A DNA stretch of 33,993 bases from a bacterium. GTDB lineage: Bacteria > Actinomycetota > Thermoleophilia > Solirubrobacterales > 70-9. Shown piece by piece: positions 5,886-30,862 of the stretch (positions within the stretch are counted from its first letter, which is position 1; each line of letters opens with the position of its first letter). The stretch is from positions 4,024 through 38,016 of the forward strand of contig JAHEXV010000017.1 in NCBI GenBank assembly GCA_023251935.1, given 5' to 3'. The translations under genes and the position numbers were made by a program. The notes below the pieces were generated by a model. It was not told the origin of the DNA. It saw only the letters and a list, made by a program, of their open reading frames with translations, and ran no database searches.

Positions 5886-6668
5886 GTGGGGCGTGCCGTG
5901 GAAGGACGCCCGACTGTTCTCGTCCTTACGCCCGTCAAGCAGGCTGCCGCCCATCTCCCGCGGTACTTCGAGGCGTTGTCGCGGCTGGATTACCCGCCCG
6001 ACCGCCTGAGCATCGGCATCCTCGAGGGCGACAGCACCGACGACAGCTATGAGCGGATCACGGAGCGCCTCCCCGGCCTGCGGGAGAGGCACTGTCGGGT
6101 GACGCTGACGCAGTGGAACTCCAACTTTCAGATCCCCGACGGCGTCCCGCGCTGGGCGCCCCCGTTCCAGCTGCCGCGTCGGGTGGTGCTGGCGAAGGCG
6201 CGAAACCGCCTGCTGAACGCCGCCCTTCACGACGAGGAGTGGGTGCTGTGGCTGGACATCGACGTGGTGGAGTACCCCGCCGACGTGCTCGAGCGCTTGC
6301 TAGCGACCGGCAAGGACATCGTCACCCCCCACTGCGTGGTCGAGTGGGGAGGGCCGACGTTCGACTGGAACGCCTGGCGCAACAAGGGCCGGGAGCGCAT
6401 GGACGCCCTGCGAGGAGGTCCGGACCTGGTTCGCCTCGACGGGGTGGGCGGGACCATGCTCCTGATCCGGGCCGACCTTCACCGCGAGGGTCTCGTCTTC
6501 CCCCCGTTCCCGTACGGTCGCCGCAACCGCTTCGCCCGCGAGACGAACCCGTTGTTGGGACATGGCATGGGCGAGGTCGAGACCGAGGGGCTTGGGCTGA
6601 TGGCCAAGGACATGGGCCACGAGTGCTGGGGAATGCCCAACCTCGAGATCGTCCACCCCAACCGGTGA
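5886..6668 (+). CDS. Glycosyltransferase, Anp1/GT62-like GT-A fold
   Basis: Encodes 260 residues. The N-terminus (VLVLTPVKQAAAHLPRYFEAL) and ILEGDSTDDSYE (about 45-56) form the nucleotide-sugar-binding start of a GT-A fold. The DxD metal/nucleotide motif is WLDIDVVEY (Asp124, Asp126). The later GGTMLLIRADL and the acidic GEVETEGLGLMAKDMGH segment fit the acceptor side. This pattern resembles the Anp1 (mannan polymerase subunit) family, so it probably transfers a sugar from an NDP-sugar in the cytoplasm; donor and acceptor cannot be read. The GTG at 5886 is the most upstream start before the fold; another GTG at 5898 is possible. Its stop overlaps the next GTG by four bases (GTGA), so it begins a coupled operon. 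Confidence 0.85.
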   Translation: MGRAVEGRPTVLVLTPVKQAAAHLPRYFEALSRLDYPPDRLSIGILEGDSTDDSYERITERLPGLRERHCRVTLTQWNSNFQIPDGVPRWAPPFQLPRRVVLAKARNRLLNAALHDEEWVLWLDIDVVEYPADVLERLLATGKDIVTPHCVVEWGGPTFDWNAWRNKGRERMDALRGGPDLVRLDGVGGTMLLIRADLHREGLVFPPFPYGRRNRFARETNPLLGHGMGEVETEGLGLMAKDMGHECWGMPNLEIVHPNR

Positions 6669-7855
6669 GCCGAGCTCAGATCCTGTTCCTGACGCCGGTA
6701 ATGCCGGCCGAGGGCGGCAACGGACTGGCCATGCGTGCGGGGCTCCTGCTCGAGGGGCTGGCCCGGGCCGGTCCGGTGCGGGTGCTCGTGGCGCCGACGT
6801 TCGGCCACCCGGGCCCGCCAACCGCTCTGGCCGCTCGCCTCGCCGCGTCGGTGGAGGTCCTGCCGCTCGACCCCAACCCGGACGCCGTCGCCGACCTGAC
6901 GGCTCGACTCGGCACTCCGGAGGGACGGGCTCGGGCCCGTGCCCTGCATCCTCTTCCGGCCCTGTGCCGAACCGCGACGCCTGCAGCGTCGAAGGCCGTC
7001 GCCGAGGCGGCGCAGGGTGTGGCTCTGGTCCTGGCGATGCGGCTCTACCTCGCGCCCCTTCTGGACGTCCTCGTCGACCGGCCGCGGCGCCCCGCGCTCG
7101 CCCTCGACGTCGACGATGTCGAGTCGCTGACGCAGCGGAATCTCGGCCACCTTGAGGAGGCGTCGCGATTCGAGCGGCTCGAGAGGACCTACCTGCCGCT
7201 ACTCGACCGCGTAATCGCCTGCTCCAGGGACGACGCCGACCGCCTCGCCGACCTCCACAAGCTGCGGGCGACCGTTGTGGTGCCCAACGCCATTCGCCCG
7301 CCCGCCTCCGTGGGCGGTCGCCTCCTCGCCCACCATGACCTCGTCTTCGTTGGCAATCTGAGTTACGGCCCGAACGCCGACGGCGCTCGCTGGCTCTGCC
7401 GGGAGGTACTGCCGCGCCTGGAGGGGCGGACCGCGGCGCTGGTGGGCAGCCGGCCGGGCCCGGATCTGCTGGAGCTGGCGGCCGACTGCGCCGTGACGGT
7501 CGCCGGAGACGTCGCCGACGTCGCTCCTTGGTACCGGTCGGCTTCGGTCGCGGTGGTCCCGATCCGGGCCGGCGGTGGCACCCGAATCAAGGTTCTCGAG
7601 GCCCTCGCCCACCGCCGACCCGTGGTGGCGACCACCGCGGGCGCGCGCGGCCTCGAGCTGGCGGGAAGCGACGGTCCGATACTGACGGCCGACACCGCGG
7701 ACGCCTTCGCTGCCGCATGCCGGCGGCTCCTCGATCAGCCGACTCTCGCCGCTCGCTTGGCCGAACGGGGCGCGGAGGTCGTCCTCACCATGAGCAGCGT
7801 GGACGCCGTCGCCCCGCTCGTTGAGGTGCTCGCCCTCGATACCTTCCGACGGTGA
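6665..7855 (+). CDS. Glycosyltransferase, GT4/GT1-like GT-B fold
   Basis: Encodes 396 residues from the GTG that overlaps the preceding stop (GTGA). The N-terminal domain begins QILFLTPVMPAEGGNGLAMRAG, a typical GT4 glycine loop after the first strand. An ALDVDDVESLTQRN segment near residue 145 is characteristic of GT4-like enzymes that act on surface glycans. The C-terminal Rossmann domain starts LVFVGNLSYGPNADGARWL and ends with GGGTRIKVLEALAHRRPVVAT (about residues 300-320), the usual NDP-sugar-binding motif; the conserved Glu is in KVLEALA. It is probably a retaining transferase. Four-base overlaps at both ends tie its translation to the GT-A enzyme before it and the PqqD-like protein after it. 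Confidence 0.9.
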   Translation: MSRAQILFLTPVMPAEGGNGLAMRAGLLLEGLARAGPVRVLVAPTFGHPGPPTALAARLAASVEVLPLDPNPDAVADLTARLGTPEGRARARALHPLPALCRTATPAASKAVAEAAQGVALVLAMRLYLAPLLDVLVDRPRRPALALDVDDVESLTQRNLGHLEEASRFERLERTYLPLLDRVIACSRDDADRLADLHKLRATVVVPNAIRPPASVGGRLLAHHDLVFVGNLSYGPNADGARWLCREVLPRLEGRTAALVGSRPGPDLLELAADCAVTVAGDVADVAPWYRSASVAVVPIRAGGGTRIKVLEALAHRRPVVATTAGARGLELAGSDGPILTADTADAFAAACRRLLDQPTLAARLAERGAEVVLTMSSVDAVAPLVEVLALDTFRR

Positions 7856-8694: not shown

Positions 8695-9807
8695 GTGAGC
8701 ACACCGCTGCTCAGCGCGACCCTGATCGTTCGCGACGAGGAGCGCAATCTGCGCGAGTGCCTGGGCTCGGTCGACGGCGTGGCCGATGAGGTGGTGATCG
8801 TCGACACCGGCTCCACCGACGGCTCGATCGAGATCGCAGGAGAACTTGGAGCCCGGGTCGTCTCGCATCCCTGGCGGGGCGACTTCTCCGAGGCACGCAA
8901 CGTCGCGCTCGAAGCGGCACGGGGCGAGTGGATCCTCTACCTCGATGCCGACGAACGCCTTCGTCCCGTCGATCGCGGTGGGGTCTCCGGGCAGCTTCGC
9001 GGCGCGCGCGAGACCGCGTTTCGCATCCTCCTGCACCCGTTCGCCGGCGCGACGCCGTTCTTCGAGTACCGGTTGTGGCGAGCCGATCCCGAGATCCGCT
9101 TCCGGGGCGCGATCCACGAGCAGGTCGTGGACGACATCCATCGTGTGGCGGCGCGCGACGGGCGGCCGGTCTCCGACTGGGGGGACCTCGAGCTCGACCA
9201 CCTCGGGTACGAGGGCGACCAGGCGTCCAAGCACCGTCGCAACCTGCCCTTGCTGCGGCGCCAGCTCGACGCCGACCCGAACAACATCTTCAACTGGAAC
9301 CACCTGGCTCGTGTGCTGATCGCCGTCGGCGACCCCGCGGGGGCGGAGCAGGCGCTGGAGGAGGCTGTGGCGCTTGCGCGGGTCGAGGGCTCGCCCGCCA
9401 GCCACAGCAGCCTCGCATGGGGCGACCTGGTTCGGCTGCGGCATGACCGCGGCGCCGACGTCACATCGCTGCTCGCCGAGGGCAAGGCTCGCTGGCCGGA
9501 GAACTGGCTGCTCGTCTGGATCGAGGGCAACATCCTGCTCGACACCGGGATGCTCGAGGAAGGCGCGGCGTGCTTCGAGCGCTTGCTCGCTGTCGACGTC
9601 GCCATTCTCCCCGAGCAGGGCGTCGCCTACGATGGCCGCCTTTTTGGGTCGTTCGCGTACTCCTCGCTGGGCCTTGCTCTTTTTCGCCTGGGGCGCTACG
9701 AGGAGGCGGCCGAGGCCTACGCCGCCGCCAGCCTCTTGGAGCCCGACTGCTCCGAGCATGCCGCCAAACAAGCCCTCGCCGAGGCCCGCGCGCGAGCCAC
9801 GCCGTGA
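8695..9807 (+). CDS. GT2-family glycosyltransferase with C-terminal TPR repeats
   Basis: Encodes 370 residues from a GTG. The N-terminal GT2 domain shows LSATLIVRDEERNLRECLGS, VDTGSTDGS (36-44) and the DxD motif LYLDADERL (Asp84, Asp86); HEQVVDDIHRVA is a later conserved part of this subfamily. From about residue 215 the protein is alpha-helical with TPR-like repeats (NHLARVLIAVGDPAGAEQALEEAV; SLGLALFRLGRYEEAAEAYAAAS). GT2-TPR fusions of the SunS/WaaE type are known, and SunS-like members glycosylate peptides; that this one does so is only an inference from the neighbouring PqqD-like and exported proteins. It is 29 bases after the exported-protein gene and is probably the last cistron of the unit. 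Confidence 0.88.
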   Translation: MSTPLLSATLIVRDEERNLRECLGSVDGVADEVVIVDTGSTDGSIEIAGELGARVVSHPWRGDFSEARNVALEAARGEWILYLDADERLRPVDRGGVSGQLRGARETAFRILLHPFAGATPFFEYRLWRADPEIRFRGAIHEQVVDDIHRVAARDGRPVSDWGDLELDHLGYEGDQASKHRRNLPLLRRQLDADPNNIFNWNHLARVLIAVGDPAGAEQALEEAVALARVEGSPASHSSLAWGDLVRLRHDRGADVTSLLAEGKARWPENWLLVWIEGNILLDTGMLEEGAACFERLLAVDVAILPEQGVAYDGRLFGSFAYSSLGLALFRLGRYEEAAEAYAAASLLEPDCSEHAAKQALAEARARATP

Positions 9808-11627: not shown

Positions 11628-11990
11628 ATGGGGTGGAGCTTCGACCGTGTCTCCACTCACGGCAGCGACTTCAACTTCGACTTTGGGTTCTCGCACACCG
11701 AGGAGGAGGAGGTGCGCTCGTTCCTGGAGGACGGAGCGCCTCCGGTGATCAGCAATGTCGCGGCTGCGAGCGGGACGGACCTGGCGGGATACATGGCGGA
11801 GGGCCCAGGTCTGAGCGCGTTCGCGCTCTCCGACGGCGTCGTCTACCACACCTACGCGCCCACCAATCGCGGGCTGGAGCCGACGATGGGCTACTACGGC
11901 CTGCTGGGGAGAAACGAGGGCGACCCGCCAGAGTTCTGGTTCCGACGCCACGACGAGTACGAGGACGCCGGCGCCGGACGGGGGGAATGA
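11628..11990 (+). pseudogene. DUF899 protein, C-terminal half only
   Basis: Encodes 120 residues that match from memory the C-terminal half of DUF899 (thioredoxin-like) proteins: GWSFDRVSTHGSDFNFDFGFS, LSAFALSDGVVYHTYAP, then GYYGLL and WFRRHDEYED. Family members are about 220-250 residues, with an N-terminal thioredoxin-like half carrying the FMFGPDW and CxxC-type region. Here that half is absent, and an in-frame TAA lies ten bases before the ATG. A purine-rich AGAGGGG does precede the ATG, so a short product could still be made. It is best treated as a truncated gene, consistent with the mosaic structure of the region. Confidence 0.65.
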
Positions 11991-12308: not shown

Positions 12309-13979
12309 ATGGTCCGCGCACCTACCACCGCTTTGCGGCAGCCCGAGGCCCCCCGCAGCCTCCTCGCCAACGGACTAGCGGGCGGCAACGGCTCCGCCCT
12401 GGTCCAACCGCGGCCCTCGCTCGGCAGCCTGCAGCGTGTCAAGCACGGCCGAGTTACCTTGCTGCGGGCGACGATCGACTTCCTGGGCGCCTCGGCGGCA
12501 CTTGCGGCCGTCATGTTGCAGAGCGGCTTGCCGGCGTGGCCGGCGATCCCGCTCGCCCCGCTCCTCCTGGTCGGGCTCTCCCAGGTCCTGGGCCTCTACG
12601 GGTCGTCGGACCACCTCGTGAACCGAACGGCTGATCTCGACGGCCGGCCGCTTACAGGTCGGCTCCTGACGACCGCGCTATTCGCCTGGACGGCGTCCCT
12701 GCTGGTCGCCAGCCACGGTCCCGTGCTTGGGGTGATCGGGCAGCTGGCGCTCTGGATCTTGGCGTTCACGCTCGGCTCGCTGGGGAGCGCGGCAGTCGCT
12801 CCAGTCGCCCGTCGGATCGAACACGTCGAGCGGTGGTTGGTGGTGGGCGACACCGAGACCGTGGAGAGGCTCAAGGCGTATGAGCCCCTGCGTGCCCATG
12901 CCAGGATCGTGCACAGCGTTCCGCCGCCCGGCCCGACCTCCGTCCCGCCGGCCGATCGCGAGTCGGTCCTACGGATGGTGGATGACAACGGAGCAGATCG
13001 CGTCGTGATCGCCGCCCGAAGCCTGGACGACAACGGCCTGGTGGCAATGATCAAGACGTTCCGCTCGCTCGGGGTGCCGGTCAGCCTGCTGCCACGCCCG
13101 CTGGACCTTCTTGAGGCTCCTGCGGCGGTGCCCGTTCGGCTCGGCGGAGTCCCCCTGATCCAAGTCAAGTCTCTCGCCGCCCAGGGACGGCCCCCTTACC
13201 GAGGCCCCGATCGTCGCCGCGACCGGCGGACACGAGTCAGCGTGGTGATCCCCGCCCTCAACGAAGCCGACAACATCGCCCACGTCCTCGAGCGTTTTCC
13301 CGAGGACCTGCACGAGGTGATCCTGGTCGACGGCAACTCGCGCGATCGCACCGTCGAGGTCGCGAGGCAGGCACGCCCCGAGATCCGCGTTGTCACCCAG
13401 CCCGGAATCGGCAAGGGCGATGCGCTACGCGCCGGCTTCGCCGCGGTGACCGGAAATCTGATCGTGATGATCGATGCCGACGGCTCTGCAGATCCCGCCG
13501 AGATCCCGCGCTTTGTGGCGGCGCTTGAAGCGGGGGCCGACTTCGCCAAGGGGTCGCGCTTCCTCCCTGGCGCGGGCAGCGCCGACATAACGAAGGTTCG
13601 CCGACTGGGGAACTACTGCCTCAGTGGCGTCGTCAATCTGCTCTACCGCACCCACTTCTCCGACCTCTGCTACGGCTACAACGCCTTCTGGGCTCGGTGC
13701 CTGCCGTTCATCTCGCTCGACGTAGCCGGATTCGAGGTCGAGACTCTGATCAACCTGCGCGTGGCCAACGCGGGTATGAGGATCTCGGAGGTACCCAGCT
13801 ACGAGGCCGACCGCCTCTCCGGCGAGACCCACCTCAAGACCTTCCGCGACGGCTTCCGGGTGCTGTTCACGGTTTTCGGGGAGTGGGGACACCAGCACGC
13901 CCCGACCCACCGAGGAGACAGGAAGGCGCGAAATGCGGAGCATCCGGCCCGCCGGCAGGACCCCGTAACGGCCGGGTGA
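12309..13979 (+). CDS. Chimeric membrane protein: glycosylphosphotransferase-like N-terminus fused to GT2
   Basis: Encodes 556 residues in three parts. Residues 50-165 contain about four membrane helices. Residues 172-290 form a Rossmann-like domain (WLVVGDTETVERL, DRVVIAARSLDD, VPVSLLPRPLDLLE, RLGGVPLIQV) as in the N-terminal half of WbaP/CpsE-type polyprenyl glycosylphosphotransferases. After an Arg-rich linker (PPYRGPDRRRDRRTR), residues 308-530 are a GT2 domain (VSVVIPALNEADNI, LVDGNSRDRT, GKGDALRAG, and DxD at IDADGSADP, Asp389/Asp391), like DPM/GtrB-type enzymes. The usual phosphotransferase domain is absent and GT2 replaces it. It probably transfers a sugar to a lipid carrier at the inner membrane face; donor unknown. 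Confidence 0.85.
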   Translation: MVRAPTTALRQPEAPRSLLANGLAGGNGSALVQPRPSLGSLQRVKHGRVTLLRATIDFLGASAALAAVMLQSGLPAWPAIPLAPLLLVGLSQVLGLYGSSDHLVNRTADLDGRPLTGRLLTTALFAWTASLLVASHGPVLGVIGQLALWILAFTLGSLGSAAVAPVARRIEHVERWLVVGDTETVERLKAYEPLRAHARIVHSVPPPGPTSVPPADRESVLRMVDDNGADRVVIAARSLDDNGLVAMIKTFRSLGVPVSLLPRPLDLLEAPAAVPVRLGGVPLIQVKSLAAQGRPPYRGPDRRRDRRTRVSVVIPALNEADNIAHVLERFPEDLHEVILVDGNSRDRTVEVARQARPEIRVVTQPGIGKGDALRAGFAAVTGNLIVMIDADGSADPAEIPRFVAALEAGADFAKGSRFLPGAGSADITKVRRLGNYCLSGVVNLLYRTHFSDLCYGYNAFWARCLPFISLDVAGFEVETLINLRVANAGMRISEVPSYEADRLSGETHLKTFRDGFRVLFTVFGEWGHQHAPTHRGDRKARNAEHPARRQDPVTAG

Positions 13980-15442: not shown

Positions 15443-15463
15443 ACAATCGGGCCCCCGCTACTC
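15443..15463 (+). repeat. Copy 3 of tRNA-3'-end-like repeat, overlapping a stop codon
   Basis: CAATCGG followed by GCCCCCGCTACTC repeats the 12186-12204 element with one extra G, and shares its last 13 bases with the tRNA fragment at 10092. Its CTA provides, on the minus strand, the TAG stop of the cyclase gene ending at 15458. The overlap could be chance or could mean that an integration event created the present gene end. Confidence 0.4.
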
Positions 15464-16801
15464 ATCGGTGGCTGCCGCGAACAGCCGCCATTCGTCGGGG
15501 ACCCCCTTGAGCTGTTGTGCGCCGCGGTCCGAGAACCGGATCTCCGATCCCGCAACGAGATCCTTGACGGTGCTGGAGACGAGCACCTCGCCTGCGGCGG
15601 CGAGGGCTCCGACCCGCGCCGCGATGTGAACCGCGATGCCGCCGACGTCCTCTTCCATCACCTCGACCTCGCCGCAGTGCAAGCCGATCCGCACCTCGAC
15701 GTCATGGGAGCGGGCCGCCTCCACGATTGCGCACCCGCAGCGGATCGCCCGCGCCGGGCCGTCGAAGGTGGCGAGGCAGCCGTCGCCCAGCGTCTTCACC
15801 TCGCGTCCGCGGAACCGCTCCAGCTCGCGCCGCACCGCTGCCTGATGCGTTGCGAGCAGCTCGCGCCAGCGGGCGTCCCCGAACTCGGCCGCTCGCTCCG
15901 TCGAGCCGACGATATCCGTGAACATCACGGTTGCGAGCACACGGTCGGGCTCGGGCACCGTGCGGGCGCCGGTCAGGAACTCCTCGATCTCCCCGAGCAC
16001 CCCGTCCGCGTCGCCCGCCCATGGCAGATGGTCGATCCCGGGAAGCTCCACGTATCGGGCGTCCGGGATCTGTTCGGCGAGCTCCCTCCCAGCCCCTCGA
16101 TTGACGACCCGGTCGCCGCGCCGATGGAGGACGAGCGTCGGAACGTGGATCGTGGGCAGGATGGCTCGGACGTCGATGTCCAGGAACATCTCGAAGATCT
16201 GCTGGACCATCGCCGGACTCGCGGCGGAGCGCTCCATCCGGGCGGTGAACTCCACCGCCTGGGGATCGCCCGCGAAGCTCGGGGCGAAGAGCTCGACCAT
16301 CCCCTCTGCCTGTTGCCCCCAGTATGGGGCGATGAACTCGGCGGCGGACTCGCGAAGCGCTTCCGCGGGTGAGGCCCAGGGGTAGTCCGGCGCCTCCGTG
16401 GTGCGTCCCATAGCGCCGTGGAGCACCAGAGCCGTCACGCGATCGGGGTGAGTGGCGGCGAACAAGACGCTCATCGGGCCGCCCTCGGAGATCCCGAAAA
16501 GTGCCGCCCGCTCGGACCCGGCGGCGTCCATGACCGCTCGAACGTCGTCGATCCGCTGCTCGAGGGTCGGCACCTCGGTGACGGGGTCGGACAGTCCGGT
16601 GCCGCGCTTGTCGAAGACGATCAGGCGCGAGAACGAGCCGATCCGCTCGAAGAAGCGAGCGAACGGAGGCGACTCCCACTGGAGCTCGAGGTGGGTGGCG
16701 AAGCCGAGGACGAGCACCACGTCGATTGGCCCGTCGCCGACGACCTGGTAGGCGATCGAGGTGTCGCCGGACTTGGCGTACTGGGTCGGCGGAGTGCTCA
16801 T
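15458..16801 (-). CDS. Alpha/beta hydrolase fused to class III adenylate/guanylate cyclase
   Basis: Encodes 447 residues. Residues 1-280 are an alpha/beta hydrolase with GISEGG (Ser105) as nucleophile elbow and FDKRGTGLSD upstream. Residues 286-447 are a class III cyclase domain: FTDIVGST (metal ligand Asp296), VKTLGDG (purine-recognising Lys336 and metal ligand Asp340), Asp385 at the second substrate-specificity position, and Arg396. The residue that is normally the transition-state Asn (VNxxAR) is His392 (VHIAAR). The Lys/Asp pair predicts ATP as substrate; the His raises doubt about rate. The same fusion occurs in mycobacterial Rv1900c-like proteins. Its start overlaps the stop of the upstream epimerase gene by four bases. 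Confidence 0.9.
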   Translation of the reverse strand: MSTPPTQYAKSGDTSIAYQVVGDGPIDVVLVLGFATHLELQWESPPFARFFERIGSFSRLIVFDKRGTGLSDPVTEVPTLEQRIDDVRAVMDAAGSERAALFGISEGGPMSVLFAATHPDRVTALVLHGAMGRTTEAPDYPWASPAEALRESAAEFIAPYWGQQAEGMVELFAPSFAGDPQAVEFTARMERSAASPAMVQQIFEMFLDIDVRAILPTIHVPTLVLHRRGDRVVNRGAGRELAEQIPDARYVELPGIDHLPWAGDADGVLGEIEEFLTGARTVPEPDRVLATVMFTDIVGSTERAAEFGDARWRELLATHQAAVRRELERFRGREVKTLGDGCLATFDGPARAIRCGCAIVEAARSHDVEVRIGLHCGEVEVMEEDVGGIAVHIAARVGALAAAGEVLVSSTVKDLVAGSEIRFSDRGAQQLKGVPDEWRLFAAATDE

Positions 16802-28449: not shown

Positions 28450-28884
28450 ATGGCCGAATTTCCCGCACCCCGGGAGGGGATCCTGCTCACGCACTTCATC
28501 GTCTCCGATGACGTCGAACGCTCTCGCCGCTTCTACGCCGACGTGCTCGGGGGCGAGACGATCCGGTCGGGTGAGCCGTCGTTCGTCGCGCTCGCCAACA
28601 GCTGGATCATCATCAACGTCGGCGGCGGGCCCACGGACGACAAGCCGACGGTCACGCTCGAGACGCCGCCCGACCCGGACCGCACGAGCAGCTTCCTCAA
28701 CATCCGCGTTGCCGACATCGACGCGGTCTACAGGGATTGGAGCGCCCGAGGAGCCGAGTTCCTCACGCCTCCGCAGGACCGCGGAGCAGAGATTCGCTGC
28801 TACGTCCGCGACCCGGACGGACACCTGATCGAGGTCGGGCAGACCAGCCAGGCCCTGCTGGAGCAGGTCTCTGGGGCGGCTTGA
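28450..28884 (+). CDS. VOC-superfamily protein (glyoxalase-like)
   Basis: Encodes 144 residues with an excellent ribosome-binding site (AGGAGG) before the ATG. Typical VOC segments: LTHFIVSDDVERSRRFYADVLGGE, SWIIINVGGGPTDD, SFLNIRVADIDAVYRDWSARGAEFL and CYVRDPDGHLIEVGQ. His15 and Glu128 sit at the positions commonly used for metal binding. The substrate is unknown. Its last 122 bases lie antisense to the end of the GGDEF/HD-GYP gene. Confidence 0.9.
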   Translation: MAEFPAPREGILLTHFIVSDDVERSRRFYADVLGGETIRSGEPSFVALANSWIIINVGGGPTDDKPTVTLETPPDPDRTSSFLNIRVADIDAVYRDWSARGAEFLTPPQDRGAEIRCYVRDPDGHLIEVGQTSQALLEQVSGAA

Positions 28885-30862
28885 CCCGGTCGACGACGCG
28901 GCAGAAGACCTCGACCAGGTGCGGATCGAACTGGGTGCCGGCTCCCCGGCGAAGCTCGGCGAGGGCCTCGTTCTGATCGCGTCGGGCCGAGTAGGGACGT
29001 TCGCTGCGCATCGCGTCGAAGGCGTCGCAGACGCTGATGATCCGGGCGCCCAGTGCGGTCTCCTCGCCCGCGAGACCGTCCGGGTAGCCCTCGCCGTCCC
29101 AACGCTCGTGCGATGAACGGACGAGGCGCGCAATCGGACTCATCGAGGGGAAGGTGTCTAGAAGCCGTTCGCCGACCAGCGTGTGCTTTCGCATCAGCTC
29201 CCACTCGATCTCGTCCAGCGGTGCGGGCTTGCGGAGGATCTCCTCGGGGATCGCGATCTTGCCGATGTCGTGGAACTCGGCCGCGCGCCGCAGGACATCG
29301 ATTTCCTCCGCGTCGAACGCCAGCTCGCGGCCGACCGCAACCGCCAACCGCGAGACGCCTTCGTGATGATCTGCGAGCTCTGGCTCGCGTTCACGCAAAA
29401 GCGTGAGCAGCAACTGGTGGGTCTGGCCGACGCGCCCATTGCGAGAACTCTTCTCCGAGTACATGCGTCGGTCGGCGAGCCGCAGGGCCTCGCTCGCCAC
29501 CGTCGCCTCGGCTGGGAGCAGGACGGCGCCCGCCGAGGCGGTGACCCGAAACCCCTCCCCCTGTTCGCTGAGGGCGGCCCGCCCCGCTTCGACCAGCGGC
29601 CCGGTCGCCCCGCCGCGCGATGGGACGAGGATGCAGAACTCGTCACCGCCAAGGCGGTAGGCGCGGCCCTCGGGCTCCACGGCCGCGGCCAGCTTCACTC
29701 CCAGCCGGTGGAGGAGGCTGTCGCCCGCCGGGTGCCCGAAGCTGTCGTTGTACAGCTTGAAGCCGTCGAGGTCGTAGAGGGCAAAGACGCGGCCGGGCTG
29801 GGTATCCGGGGCCAACTGGAGCGCCGATTCGAGATCGTCGATCAGCTTGCGGCGGTTGCCAAGCTCGGTCAGCGAGTCGGTGGAGGCGTCGTCGTCGAGC
29901 GCCGCCATCAAGGCGTTGTTCTCGCGGAAGCTGATTCCCATCCGGAGGATCACCGCGGCGAGCGTCGCGGCCGCGAGCCACACCGAGACCTCGTGTTGGC
30001 GACTGAAGTGATCCCAGACGAGAACTCCGACCGCAATCGCCGCGAACAGGGCAGGGAAGATCATCGGAGAGCTGTAGACGCGCCGCCGCTGCGACCGATG
30101 GGTGAAGGTGAGCGCGGCGGCGCCCGCGATCAAGACAGCGCCGATCAGCCACGACTCATCCAGCCAGCCGCCGGCATACCCCGAGGTCGCCTCCTGGTAG
30201 AGGTAGAGCCCATCGGCGATTGTCCAGGTGACCAGTCCGGCGACGATCGCGAGGAACGCGGCTGCGCCGCGGAAGCCGCTGACGACGAGCGCGCCGAGGA
30301 TGAAGCTGATCAGGAGAATGTCGCTGAGCGGGTAGGCGAGATTGGTCAGCACCGCCGGCGCGTTTCCGTTCGTCAGCCCGACCAGCGCCGGTGCAAGCAG
30401 GGCGGCGCCGAGCGCCGCCGCGGCGAGTCCACCGATCGCCCCGTCGAGCCAGCTCGCCGCGGTGAAGTGCCCGATTCGCCGCTTGATCAGGAGCGCGATC
30501 CCCACGTAAAAGCAGGGCAGAGCGGCCAGGTAACCGGCGTCGGCCGCCGACGGATACGGAGTCCTCGCCAGGTCGGAGAGCGCGAGCGTCCAATAGAGGT
30601 CGCCGGCGGTCCAGAAGAGCAGCCCAAGGCCGAATGCGGCCCAGGCGGCGCGCTGGTCGCGGACGAATGCAGCGCCCGCGAAGCAGGTGAGGCTGGCGAG
30701 AACGAGCGTTCCGTGGTAGACCCAGATCCCGGCGGCATCGTCGAGCTGAGCCGGCTCCCCGGCGGCGATGAAGCCGGCATAGGCGAGCGCGCCCACGGCG
30801 GTCGCCGCCAGCAGCACCCGGACCAGGAGCCGCGATCCGCCCCATCCACTCTCAAGCGCCAT
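28763..30862 (-). CDS. Membrane GGDEF and HD-GYP domain protein (cyclic-di-GMP turnover)
   Basis: Encodes 699 residues. The N-terminal 300 contain about eight membrane helices forming an input domain. A GGDEF domain follows with an intact active site (RLGGDEFCIL, 405-409), so it may make cyclic di-GMP. The HD-GYP domain has HDIGKIAIPEEIL (His531, Asp532), RWDGEGYPDG and VCDAFDAM. The HHE motif reads SHE (Ser584-His585-Glu586), so the first of two metal-binding His residues is lost; two-metal rather than three-metal binding is then likely. The final 40 residues (after EVFCRVVD) are low-complexity Arg/Gly/Pro sequence antisense to the VOC gene. Both synthesis and hydrolysis are possible; the net direction cannot be told. 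Confidence 0.9.
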   Translation of the reverse strand: MALESGWGGSRLLVRVLLAATAVGALAYAGFIAAGEPAQLDDAAGIWVYHGTLVLASLTCFAGAAFVRDQRAAWAAFGLGLLFWTAGDLYWTLALSDLARTPYPSAADAGYLAALPCFYVGIALLIKRRIGHFTAASWLDGAIGGLAAAALGAALLAPALVGLTNGNAPAVLTNLAYPLSDILLISFILGALVVSGFRGAAAFLAIVAGLVTWTIADGLYLYQEATSGYAGGWLDESWLIGAVLIAGAAALTFTHRSQRRRVYSSPMIFPALFAAIAVGVLVWDHFSRQHEVSVWLAAATLAAVILRMGISFRENNALMAALDDDASTDSLTELGNRRKLIDDLESALQLAPDTQPGRVFALYDLDGFKLYNDSFGHPAGDSLLHRLGVKLAAAVEPEGRAYRLGGDEFCILVPSRGGATGPLVEAGRAALSEQGEGFRVTASAGAVLLPAEATVASEALRLADRRMYSEKSSRNGRVGQTHQLLLTLLREREPELADHHEGVSRLAVAVGRELAFDAEEIDVLRRAAEFHDIGKIAIPEEILRKPAPLDEIEWELMRKHTLVGERLLDTFPSMSPIARLVRSSHERWDGEGYPDGLAGEETALGARIISVCDAFDAMRSERPYSARRDQNEALAELRRGAGTQFDPHLVEVFCRVVDRVKPPQRPAPAGPGWSARPRSGVRPGRGRSSESLLRGPAEA

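What the first reader, a model, noticed from the sequence alone, without database searches (positions are those of the whole stretch)
12309..13979. GT2 replaces the phosphotransferase domain in a WbaP-like membrane protein
The membrane helices and the Rossmann-like domain that normally precede a polyprenyl glycosylphosphotransferase are joined here to a DPM/GtrB-like GT2 domain by an Arg-rich linker. This would tether a lipid-carrier glycosyltransferase to a domain whose role in the parent enzymes is unclear.
Basis: partly seen in the sequence, partly recalled or inferred. Interest (0 to 1): 0.6.

Follow-up and report, generated by a model that had tools for sequence, protein, structure and literature searches.

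The report
Sugar transferase on borrowed membrane module
An actinobacterium has joined an enzyme that probably loads sugars onto a membrane lipid to the membrane-and-sensor half of a different lipid-loading enzyme (the WbaP kind), and close relatives keep the same join, so it is real and gives a way to ask what that poorly understood half does.

Summary
ORF 12309-13979 (556 aa) is a four-helix membrane bundle plus the cytoplasmic DUF of large phosphoglycosyl transferases (WbaP kind), ending where their catalytic domain would begin. A short Arg-rich linker and a DPM/AglJ-like GT2 domain follow. The N-half matches PGT N-halves profile to profile (hhalign E 6e-17), and its model's best solved match is WbaP 8T53. 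It is not an assembly artefact: 10 full-length copies occur in 9 of 232 genomes of the order, 50-61% identical, all in one family. In trees the GT2s form one clade nested among widespread soluble GT2s, so a soluble GT2 captured a PGT membrane module rather than a PGT losing its domain. All nine genomes keep separate PGT genes. A GT-C-fold membrane protein occurs in all nine fusion genomes and in 10 of the other 223; 8 of 10 fusion genes lie within 8 kb of it. Best reading: a membrane-anchored, probably dimeric polyprenyl-phosphate sugar synthase feeding a GT-C enzyme in surface-glycan synthesis, with the DUF as dimer and nucleotide-sensing module. The activity is inferred. New variant of a known kind: the 4TM-DUF module was already known outside PGTs, in PglF-like dehydratases.

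The parts
12309..13979 (+). whole fusion gene (556 aa, ATG to stop)
   Evidence: full-length relatives
12309..12446 (+). N-terminal extension, residues 1-46, no confident structure
   Evidence: AF2 model, (residues 1-46 under pLDDT 50)
12447..12818 (+). four-helix transmembrane bundle, residues 47-170 (helices 47-72, 79-93, 113-132, 138-170), homologous to that of large PGTs
12819..13184 (+). cytoplasmic alpha/beta DUF (Rossmann-like, PF13727-type in the parents), residues 171-292
   Evidence: Pfam itself gave no PF13727 match
13131..13160 (+). residues 275-284, end of the DUF, aligned with the PGT segment 'VGGLPLISL'; corresponds by position to the dimer hairpin of WbaP
   Evidence: alignment, profile alignment; two strands in the model but at pLDDT about 30
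13185..13232 (+). linker, residues 293-308, Arg-rich, GPDRR invariant
13233..13883 (+). GT2 domain, residues 309-525, DPM/AglJ-like; DAD at 389-391 and GSR at 415-417, invariant in the fusions
13884..13979 (+). C-terminal tail, residues 526-556, variable, no transmembrane helix, then the stop

Best explanation
It is a membrane-anchored, probably homodimeric polyprenyl-phosphate sugar synthase. The four-helix bundle and DUF taken from a large PGT sit in and under the membrane. The DUF pairs two chains and may sense uridine nucleotides. The linker hangs a DPM/AglJ-type GT2 domain at the cytoplasmic face, where it moves a sugar from a nucleotide sugar onto polyprenyl phosphate. The lipid-linked sugar is then used on the outer face by a GT-C enzyme, as a rule encoded in the same gene cluster, to build or decorate a surface polysaccharide. 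Shown here by computation: the architecture, homology of each half, a single origin, conservation, and the GT-C partner's fold and linkage. Inferred: the activity, the sugar, the dimer, the nucleotide sensing and the donor hand-over.
For: N-half is PGT-type: TIGR03025, hhalign E 6.2e-17, a fusion-only HMM finds the N-region in 15 of 30 distinct PGT ORFs of the same nine genomes at i-E < 1e-5, ending near the catalytic boundary; best VIA match of the model 8t53_A WbaP, Z 10.5, rmsd 6.0, 195 aligned, model 45-263. GT2 half: best NCBIfam match AglJ 2.2e-41; best PDB match dolichol-phosphate mannose synthase 5mlz, 4.2e-16, with the D..S.DRT, DAD and GSR blocks aligned. AglJ adds the first sugar to dolichol phosphate (PMC4335974, passages). 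Partner: a membrane protein in 9 of 9 fusion genomes and 10 of 223 others; 18 of its 19 genomes are among the 46 of 232 with this GT2 subfamily (Fisher p 1.6e-13, genomes taken as independent); 16 of its 20 genes lie within 15 kb of such a GT2 (coordinates). Its model (pLDDT 81.8) has a GT-C fold. GT-C enzymes use polyprenyl-phosphate sugars in mycobacteria (PMC3485146, passages). DUF under constraint: 41 of its 122 positions invariant in 8 fusions against 10 of 124 in the helices; dN/dS 0.14-0.40 in 5 close pairs.
Against: No activity evidence. The best structural matches of the GT-C partner are STT3/AglB oligosaccharyltransferases (Z 23), which use lipid-linked oligosaccharides, yet the partner lacks their WWD motif (0 of 20). 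The window's own copy has no GT-C on its 38-kb contig; in this genome the GT-C sits beside the 4TM-GT2 paralogue on another contig. Among the 80 named loci only 11 have this GT-C within the DNA held. The membrane helices evolve fast in wide pairs (dN/dS 0.84-0.87 in two of three). The dimer hairpin is assigned by alignment only; its model confidence is about 30. TIGR04182 scores 142 bits against a cut-off of 325.
Confidence: 0.6

Rival explanations
1. The GT2 is an ordinary second-step glycosyltransferase of a Wzx/Wzy-type pathway. It adds a sugar to the polyprenyl-diphosphate sugar made by a PGT, and the borrowed PGT module serves to dock it beside, or pair it with, the resident PGT.
For: All nine fusion genomes keep PGTs (31 hits); in three (G071, G035, G029) one PGT lies on the same contig, 18-31 kb away (coordinates). 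The soluble relatives sit in polysaccharide clusters with a second GT2 (48 of 80 loci), polysaccharide deacetylase (33 of 80) and flippase-like membrane proteins. The retained DUF is the dimer element of PGTs (PMC10942596).
Against: The GT2 is nearest to lipid-monophosphate enzymes (AglJ, DPM synthase), and the GT-C partner co-occurs strongly. No PGT is adjacent; beyond the four fusions themselves, the fusion-only N-part HMM finds nothing above 7.2 bits in the kept ORFs of the 80 named loci.
Confidence: 0.22
2. The N-module is only a spare membrane anchor; the GT2 acts on some other acceptor and the DUF has no function of its own.
For: The paralogue L002 in the same genome has a homologous four-helix bundle and GT2 but no DUF (N-part HMM 20.4 bits, 0 of 1000 window shuffles as high; i-E 7.9e-5). 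The 76 other named relatives show no anchor helices at all.
Against: 41 of the 122 DUF positions (171-292) are invariant across 8 fusions, including its last segment, and dN/dS of the DUF is 0.14-0.40 in five close pairs.
Confidence: 0.15
3. Assembly artefact: a PGT and a GT2 gene joined in the assembly near 13200.
For: The window is from a fragmented draft genome (114 contigs, completeness 84).
Against: Ten full-length copies in nine genomes, with the same junction in the eight aligned.
Confidence: 0.01

Closest known systems
Large monotopic phosphoglycosyl transferases (WbaP, TIGR03025 kind)
   Same: Four-helix membrane bundle and cytoplasmic DUF, homologous over 227 profile columns up to the end of the DUF; model matches WbaP 8T53.
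   Different: The catalytic domain (Bac_transf, PF02397) is absent and a GT2 domain takes its place.
Dolichol-phosphate mannose synthase / AglJ / ArnC / GtrB-type GT2
   Same: GT-A GT2 domain with DAD and GSR motifs; best PDB match 5mlz, best NCBIfam match AglJ.
   Different: No membrane helices after the GT2; anchored at the N-terminus by a PGT module. That GtrB-type and Pyrococcus enzymes have C-terminal helices is recalled.
Mycobacterial Ppm1 (D1-D2) and PpgS with Rv3632
   Same: A GT2 polyprenyl-phosphate sugar synthase joined to, or paired with, an integral membrane partner (PMC3485146, passages).
   Different: The membrane partners there are a six-helix domain or a small membrane protein, not a PGT bundle with DUF (from the paper; not compared by sequence here).
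PglF-like NDP-sugar dehydratases
   Same: Reported to share the 4TM-DUF module with WbaP (PMC10942596, passages); the earlier example of the module on a non-PGT enzyme.
   Different: Other catalytic domain; the fusion's N-part is much nearer to PGTs (best 0.7 bits on the 8 dehydratases of the same genomes against up to 55 bits on PGTs).
AepG, dolichol-phosphate glucuronosyltransferase of Haloarcula
   Same: DPM-like GT2 that makes a lipid-monophosphate sugar for an exopolysaccharide (PMC9943897, abstract and outline).
   Different: Archaeal, no PGT module mentioned in the abstract; not compared by sequence.

Membership tests
Large monotopic PGT (WbaP kind) | N-terminal four-helix bundle | tested here: met
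   hhalign, VIA 8t53_A, helices in model
Large monotopic PGT (WbaP kind) | cytoplasmic DUF between helices and catalytic domain | tested here: met
   TIGR03025 57-292, hhalign to the DUF end; PF13727 itself gave no match, but nor did it for the genome's own PGT
Large monotopic PGT (WbaP kind) | Bac_transf catalytic domain (PF02397) | tested here: not met
   no match at E<=1; the own-genome PGT matches at 1e-64
DPM-like GT2 polyprenyl-phosphate synthase | GT2 domain with acidic DxD and GSR blocks as in 5mlz | tested here: met
DPM-like GT2 polyprenyl-phosphate synthase | membrane helices C-terminal to the GT2 (one common layout, recalled) | tested here: not met
   hydropathy count 0 downstream in all listed ORFs
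DPM-like GT2 polyprenyl-phosphate synthase | forms polyprenyl-phosphate sugar | not testable with these tools
   needs an enzyme assay
AglJ (TIGR04182) | score above the curated cut-off of 325 bits | tested here: not met
   142.2 bits, E 2.2e-41
PglF-like dehydratase | N-module nearest to that of PglF-like dehydratases, with a dehydratase domain | tested here: not met
   N-part HMM at most 0.7 bits on 8 dehydratases; no dehydratase match in the protein
GT-C (the linked partner) | GT-C fold with an invariant acidic residue early in the chain | tested here: met
   top Foldseek and VIA matches are GT-C enzymes; D100 invariant in 20 of 20 and E101 in 19 of 20
STT3/AglB/PglB oligosaccharyltransferase (the linked partner) | WWD motif (recalled) | tested here: not met
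   0 of 20 sequences, although the fold match is best to this group

The most novel reading that the evidence does not exclude
The 4TM-DUF module is a general plug-in: it docks, pairs and nucleotide-regulates enzymes that draw on the polyprenyl-phosphate pool or its nucleotide sugars. It is now found on a third enzyme class (after PGTs and PglF-like dehydratases). In these cells the fusion's DUF could swap hairpins with the resident PGT's DUF, so that one mixed dimer couples the two reactions that compete for polyprenyl phosphate.
Probability: 0.15. Interest if true: 0.75.

Novelty: new variant of a known kind. Interest (0 to 1): 0.5.

Why it matters
The role of the DUF in large PGTs has been hard to separate from PGT chemistry. 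Dodge et al. propose that it senses UMP, a product of every PGT reaction (PMC10942596, passages). A DPM-type GT2 releases a nucleoside diphosphate, not UMP (recalled), so a natural PGT-module/GT2 chimera is a ready test: if the DUF here binds UDP, or binds nothing and only dimerises, the feedback idea must be widened or dropped. It also adds a membrane-anchoring solution to those known for DPM-type synthases, and points to an unnamed GT-C family as the likely user of the product.

Tried and rejected
Misassembly: rejected by ten conserved copies. N-module from a dehydratase rather than a PGT: rejected (8 dehydratases, at most 0.7 bits). Fusion as a replacement for the PGT of the cell: rejected, PGTs are in 9 of 9 genomes. 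Partner as a classical oligosaccharyltransferase: the fold match is best to that group but there is no WWD motif. Packing of GT2 on the DUF: not answered; the model of the fusion from 8 sequences has pLDDT 52.3 and a poor GT2 half, and my second structure job went to the GT-C partner. No RNA-family search was made; nothing pointed to one.

Limits of the survey: the genome search scored at most the best 6 candidates per genome and the best 3, so extra copies may be missed; searches are even draws (399 genomes of the class, 396 of the phylum) and showed no full-length match outside family f1. Independent fusions of a PGT module to other GT2 families would not have been found. In one search (50 genomes of the family) the strong N-part hits were the ten fusions alone; the 16 weaker hits (at most 59.6 bits) lie in frames of 457-1028 codons and were not all read. 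Rows dropped: in the GT2 tree L078-L081 were left out as duplicates of L052, L049, L050 and L055, and every third of the loci L084-L157 was used. In one search five of the six possible close pairs were computed. In the neighbour clusters Louvain grouping lumped flippase-like and other polytopic proteins, so those counts are rough. The linkage count of 16 of 20 and the count of 46 GT2-bearing genomes were made by eye from the tables.

Literature: no paper with such a fusion came up (polyprenyl glycosylphosphotransferase + glycosyltransferase family 2 + fusion: 0; monotopic PGT + fusion + glycosyltransferase + network: 1, the WbaP paper; one, the same paper) or (with Solirubrobacterales: 0). DUF6541: 0 papers. 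The library holds open-licence papers only.

Full report
Observation. The ORF at 12309-13979 is a single open frame of 556 codons. NCBIfam's PGT model TIGR03025 covers residues 57-292 with its first 251 of 445 positions and stops there (E 4.6e-8; 1.9e-8 with residues 1-300 alone). Pfam finds GT2 at 311-432 (E 8.6e-25) and nothing in residues 1-300. Pfam's silence says little: the same genome's real PGT (L005:841-2334, 497 aa) shows only its catalytic domain in Pfam.

Homology of the N-half. A profile of ten fusion N-parts (A4) against sixteen PGT N-parts of the same nine genomes (A5) aligns over 227 columns with probability 98.8 and E 6.2e-17. An HMM made from the fusions alone finds the N-region of 15 of 30 distinct PGT ORFs in those genomes at i-E below 1e-5; one more has i-E 0.32 and 14 have no match. 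The matches end near the start of the catalytic domain. In the alignment the last DUF segment 'LGGVPLIQV' stands over the PGT 'VGGLPLISL', and the linker begins where PGTs have the K/R-rich entry to their catalytic domain. The AF2 model, built from 8 sequences, is poor overall (pLDDT 52.3, pTM 0.35) but has four helices at 47-170 and an alpha/beta domain after them at moderate confidence. VIA-align ranks WbaP 8t53_A first: Z 10.5, rmsd 6.0, 195 aligned, model 45-263. Foldseek alone gave it E 1.3e-2, probability 0.97. The tool warns that helical bundles can reach such Z by chance, so I lean on the sequence evidence.

The GT2 half. The nearest NCBIfam model is AglJ (E 2.2e-41, 142 bits, under its cut-off of 325), and the nearest solved enzyme is dolichol-phosphate mannose synthase (5mlz, E 4.2e-16). 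D341, D346, D389, D391, R417 and their neighbours are invariant in eight fusions.

Spread and origin. Full-length matches: 10 copies in 9 of 232 genomes of the order (G000, G023, G027, G029 twice, G031, G033, G035, G071, G072), all in family f1: 1 of 4 genomes of the window's genus, 1 of 3 of g9, 7 of 12 of g12. Samples of 399 genomes of the class and 396 of the phylum added none. Four carry public names: SZAS-10, SZAS-11, b13_HoplandSoilSeptJan and MGR_bin420, all MAGs labelled Actinomycetota or Solirubrobacterales. Of the 80 best named loci, these 4 have the N-part; the other 76 GT2s (Streptomyces, Nonomuraea, Chloroflexi and others) show no transmembrane segment before or after the domain. 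In the GT2 tree the ten fusions are one clade (SH-aLRT 97), with the own-genome paralogue L002 as sister (96), inside the soluble family. L002 has a four-helix bundle related to the fusion's (20.4 bits; 0 of 1000 window shuffles as high) and no DUF. The simplest history is one capture of a PGT N-module by a soluble GT2, with later loss of the DUF in L002; capture of helices first cannot be excluded. In the N-part tree the fusions are also one clade (98), apart from dehydratases, with long-branch warnings.

Constraint. Of the DUF's 122 positions 41 are invariant in eight fusions, of the bundle's 124 only 10 (counted). In five close pairs dN/dS is 0.14-0.40 for the DUF, 0.28-0.41 for the helices and 0.15-0.25 for the GT2; in three wide pairs it is 0.38-0.51 for the DUF but 0.42, 0.87 and 0.84 for the helices (ratios from the values, NG86, short stretches). 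The DUF is kept; the helices drift.

Surroundings. Genes beside the fusions recur: a second GT2, further glycosyltransferases, a GNAT/FemAB-like protein, GH26 in two loci, and a polytopic protein of about 600 aa. The polytopic protein is in 9 of 9 fusion genomes and 10 of the 223 others. Of its 19 genomes 18 are among the 46 of 232 with this GT2 subfamily at E<=1e-70 (count from the table; Fisher p 1.6e-13, relatedness ignored). Sixteen of its 20 genes lie within 15 kb of such a GT2, one at 29 kb, three not. Eight of ten fusion genes have it within 8 kb, G033's at 29 kb; the window's has none on its contig. Its model (20 sequences, pLDDT 81.8, pTM 0.85) matches GT-C enzymes at the top: STT3 Z 23, DPY19 17, ArnT 16.6, AftA 16 (Foldseek). 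D100 is invariant, the WWD motif is absent in 20 of 20, and Pfam's DUF6541 hits 4 of 20. GT-C enzymes take polyprenyl-phosphate sugars in mycobacteria (PMC3485146, passages), which is the main support for a polyprenyl-phosphate product here.

Comparison with what is known. WbaP's DUF makes the dimer through a swapped hairpin and binds uridine nucleotides; UMP inhibits the enzyme; the same N-module occurs on PglF-like dehydratases (PMC10942596, abstract and passages). In Myxococcus EpsZ, models suggest the activator EpsW favours an active dimer with strand exchange between the DUFs (PMC12802240, passages). Mycobacterial Ppm1 and PpgS show that DPM-type GT2s can be fused to, or paired with, a separate membrane partner (PMC3485146). 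The present protein combines these known ideas in a new pairing, so I call it a new variant of a known kind. It is not a PGT (no catalytic domain) and is only 'like' AglJ or DPM synthase until assayed.

Noticed in passing
L002:1018-2262 (G000:C95, own genome): Paralogue of 414 aa: four-helix bundle directly joined to the same GT2, without the DUF; it lies in a cluster with a second GT2, a GT2-GT4 stretch and the GT-C-like protein.
   Followed up: partly
G000:C95:12231-14108 (L173) and 19 relatives in A3: GT-C-fold family with little or no Pfam signal (DUF6541 in 4 of 20), fold nearest to STT3/AglB but without WWD, tightly linked to this GT2 subfamily.
   Followed up: partly
L091:13744-16647: Polytopic protein of 968 aa with no Pfam match in a Nonomuraea polysaccharide cluster that holds the soluble GT2; it may be another GT-C-like enzyme.
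   Followed up: no
11628-11990 (+): Only the C-terminal half of a DUF899 protein (profile 127-224 of 224), upstream of the fusion; looks like a gene remnant.
   Followed up: no
15458-16801 (-): Alpha/beta hydrolase joined to an adenylate/guanylate cyclase domain; a mycobacterial protein of this kind is recalled.
   Followed up: no
8695-9807 (+): GT2 domain joined to TPR repeats, within a run of glycosyltransferase genes (5886-6668 Anp1-like, about 6650-7855 GT4) upstream of the fusion.
   Followed up: no
28763-30862 (-): By eye, a membrane protein with GGDEF-like and HD-GYP-like motifs; not searched.
   Followed up: no
L038:2233-3372 and L041:5127-6383: GH26-family hydrolases close to the fusion gene in two relatives.
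   Followed up: no
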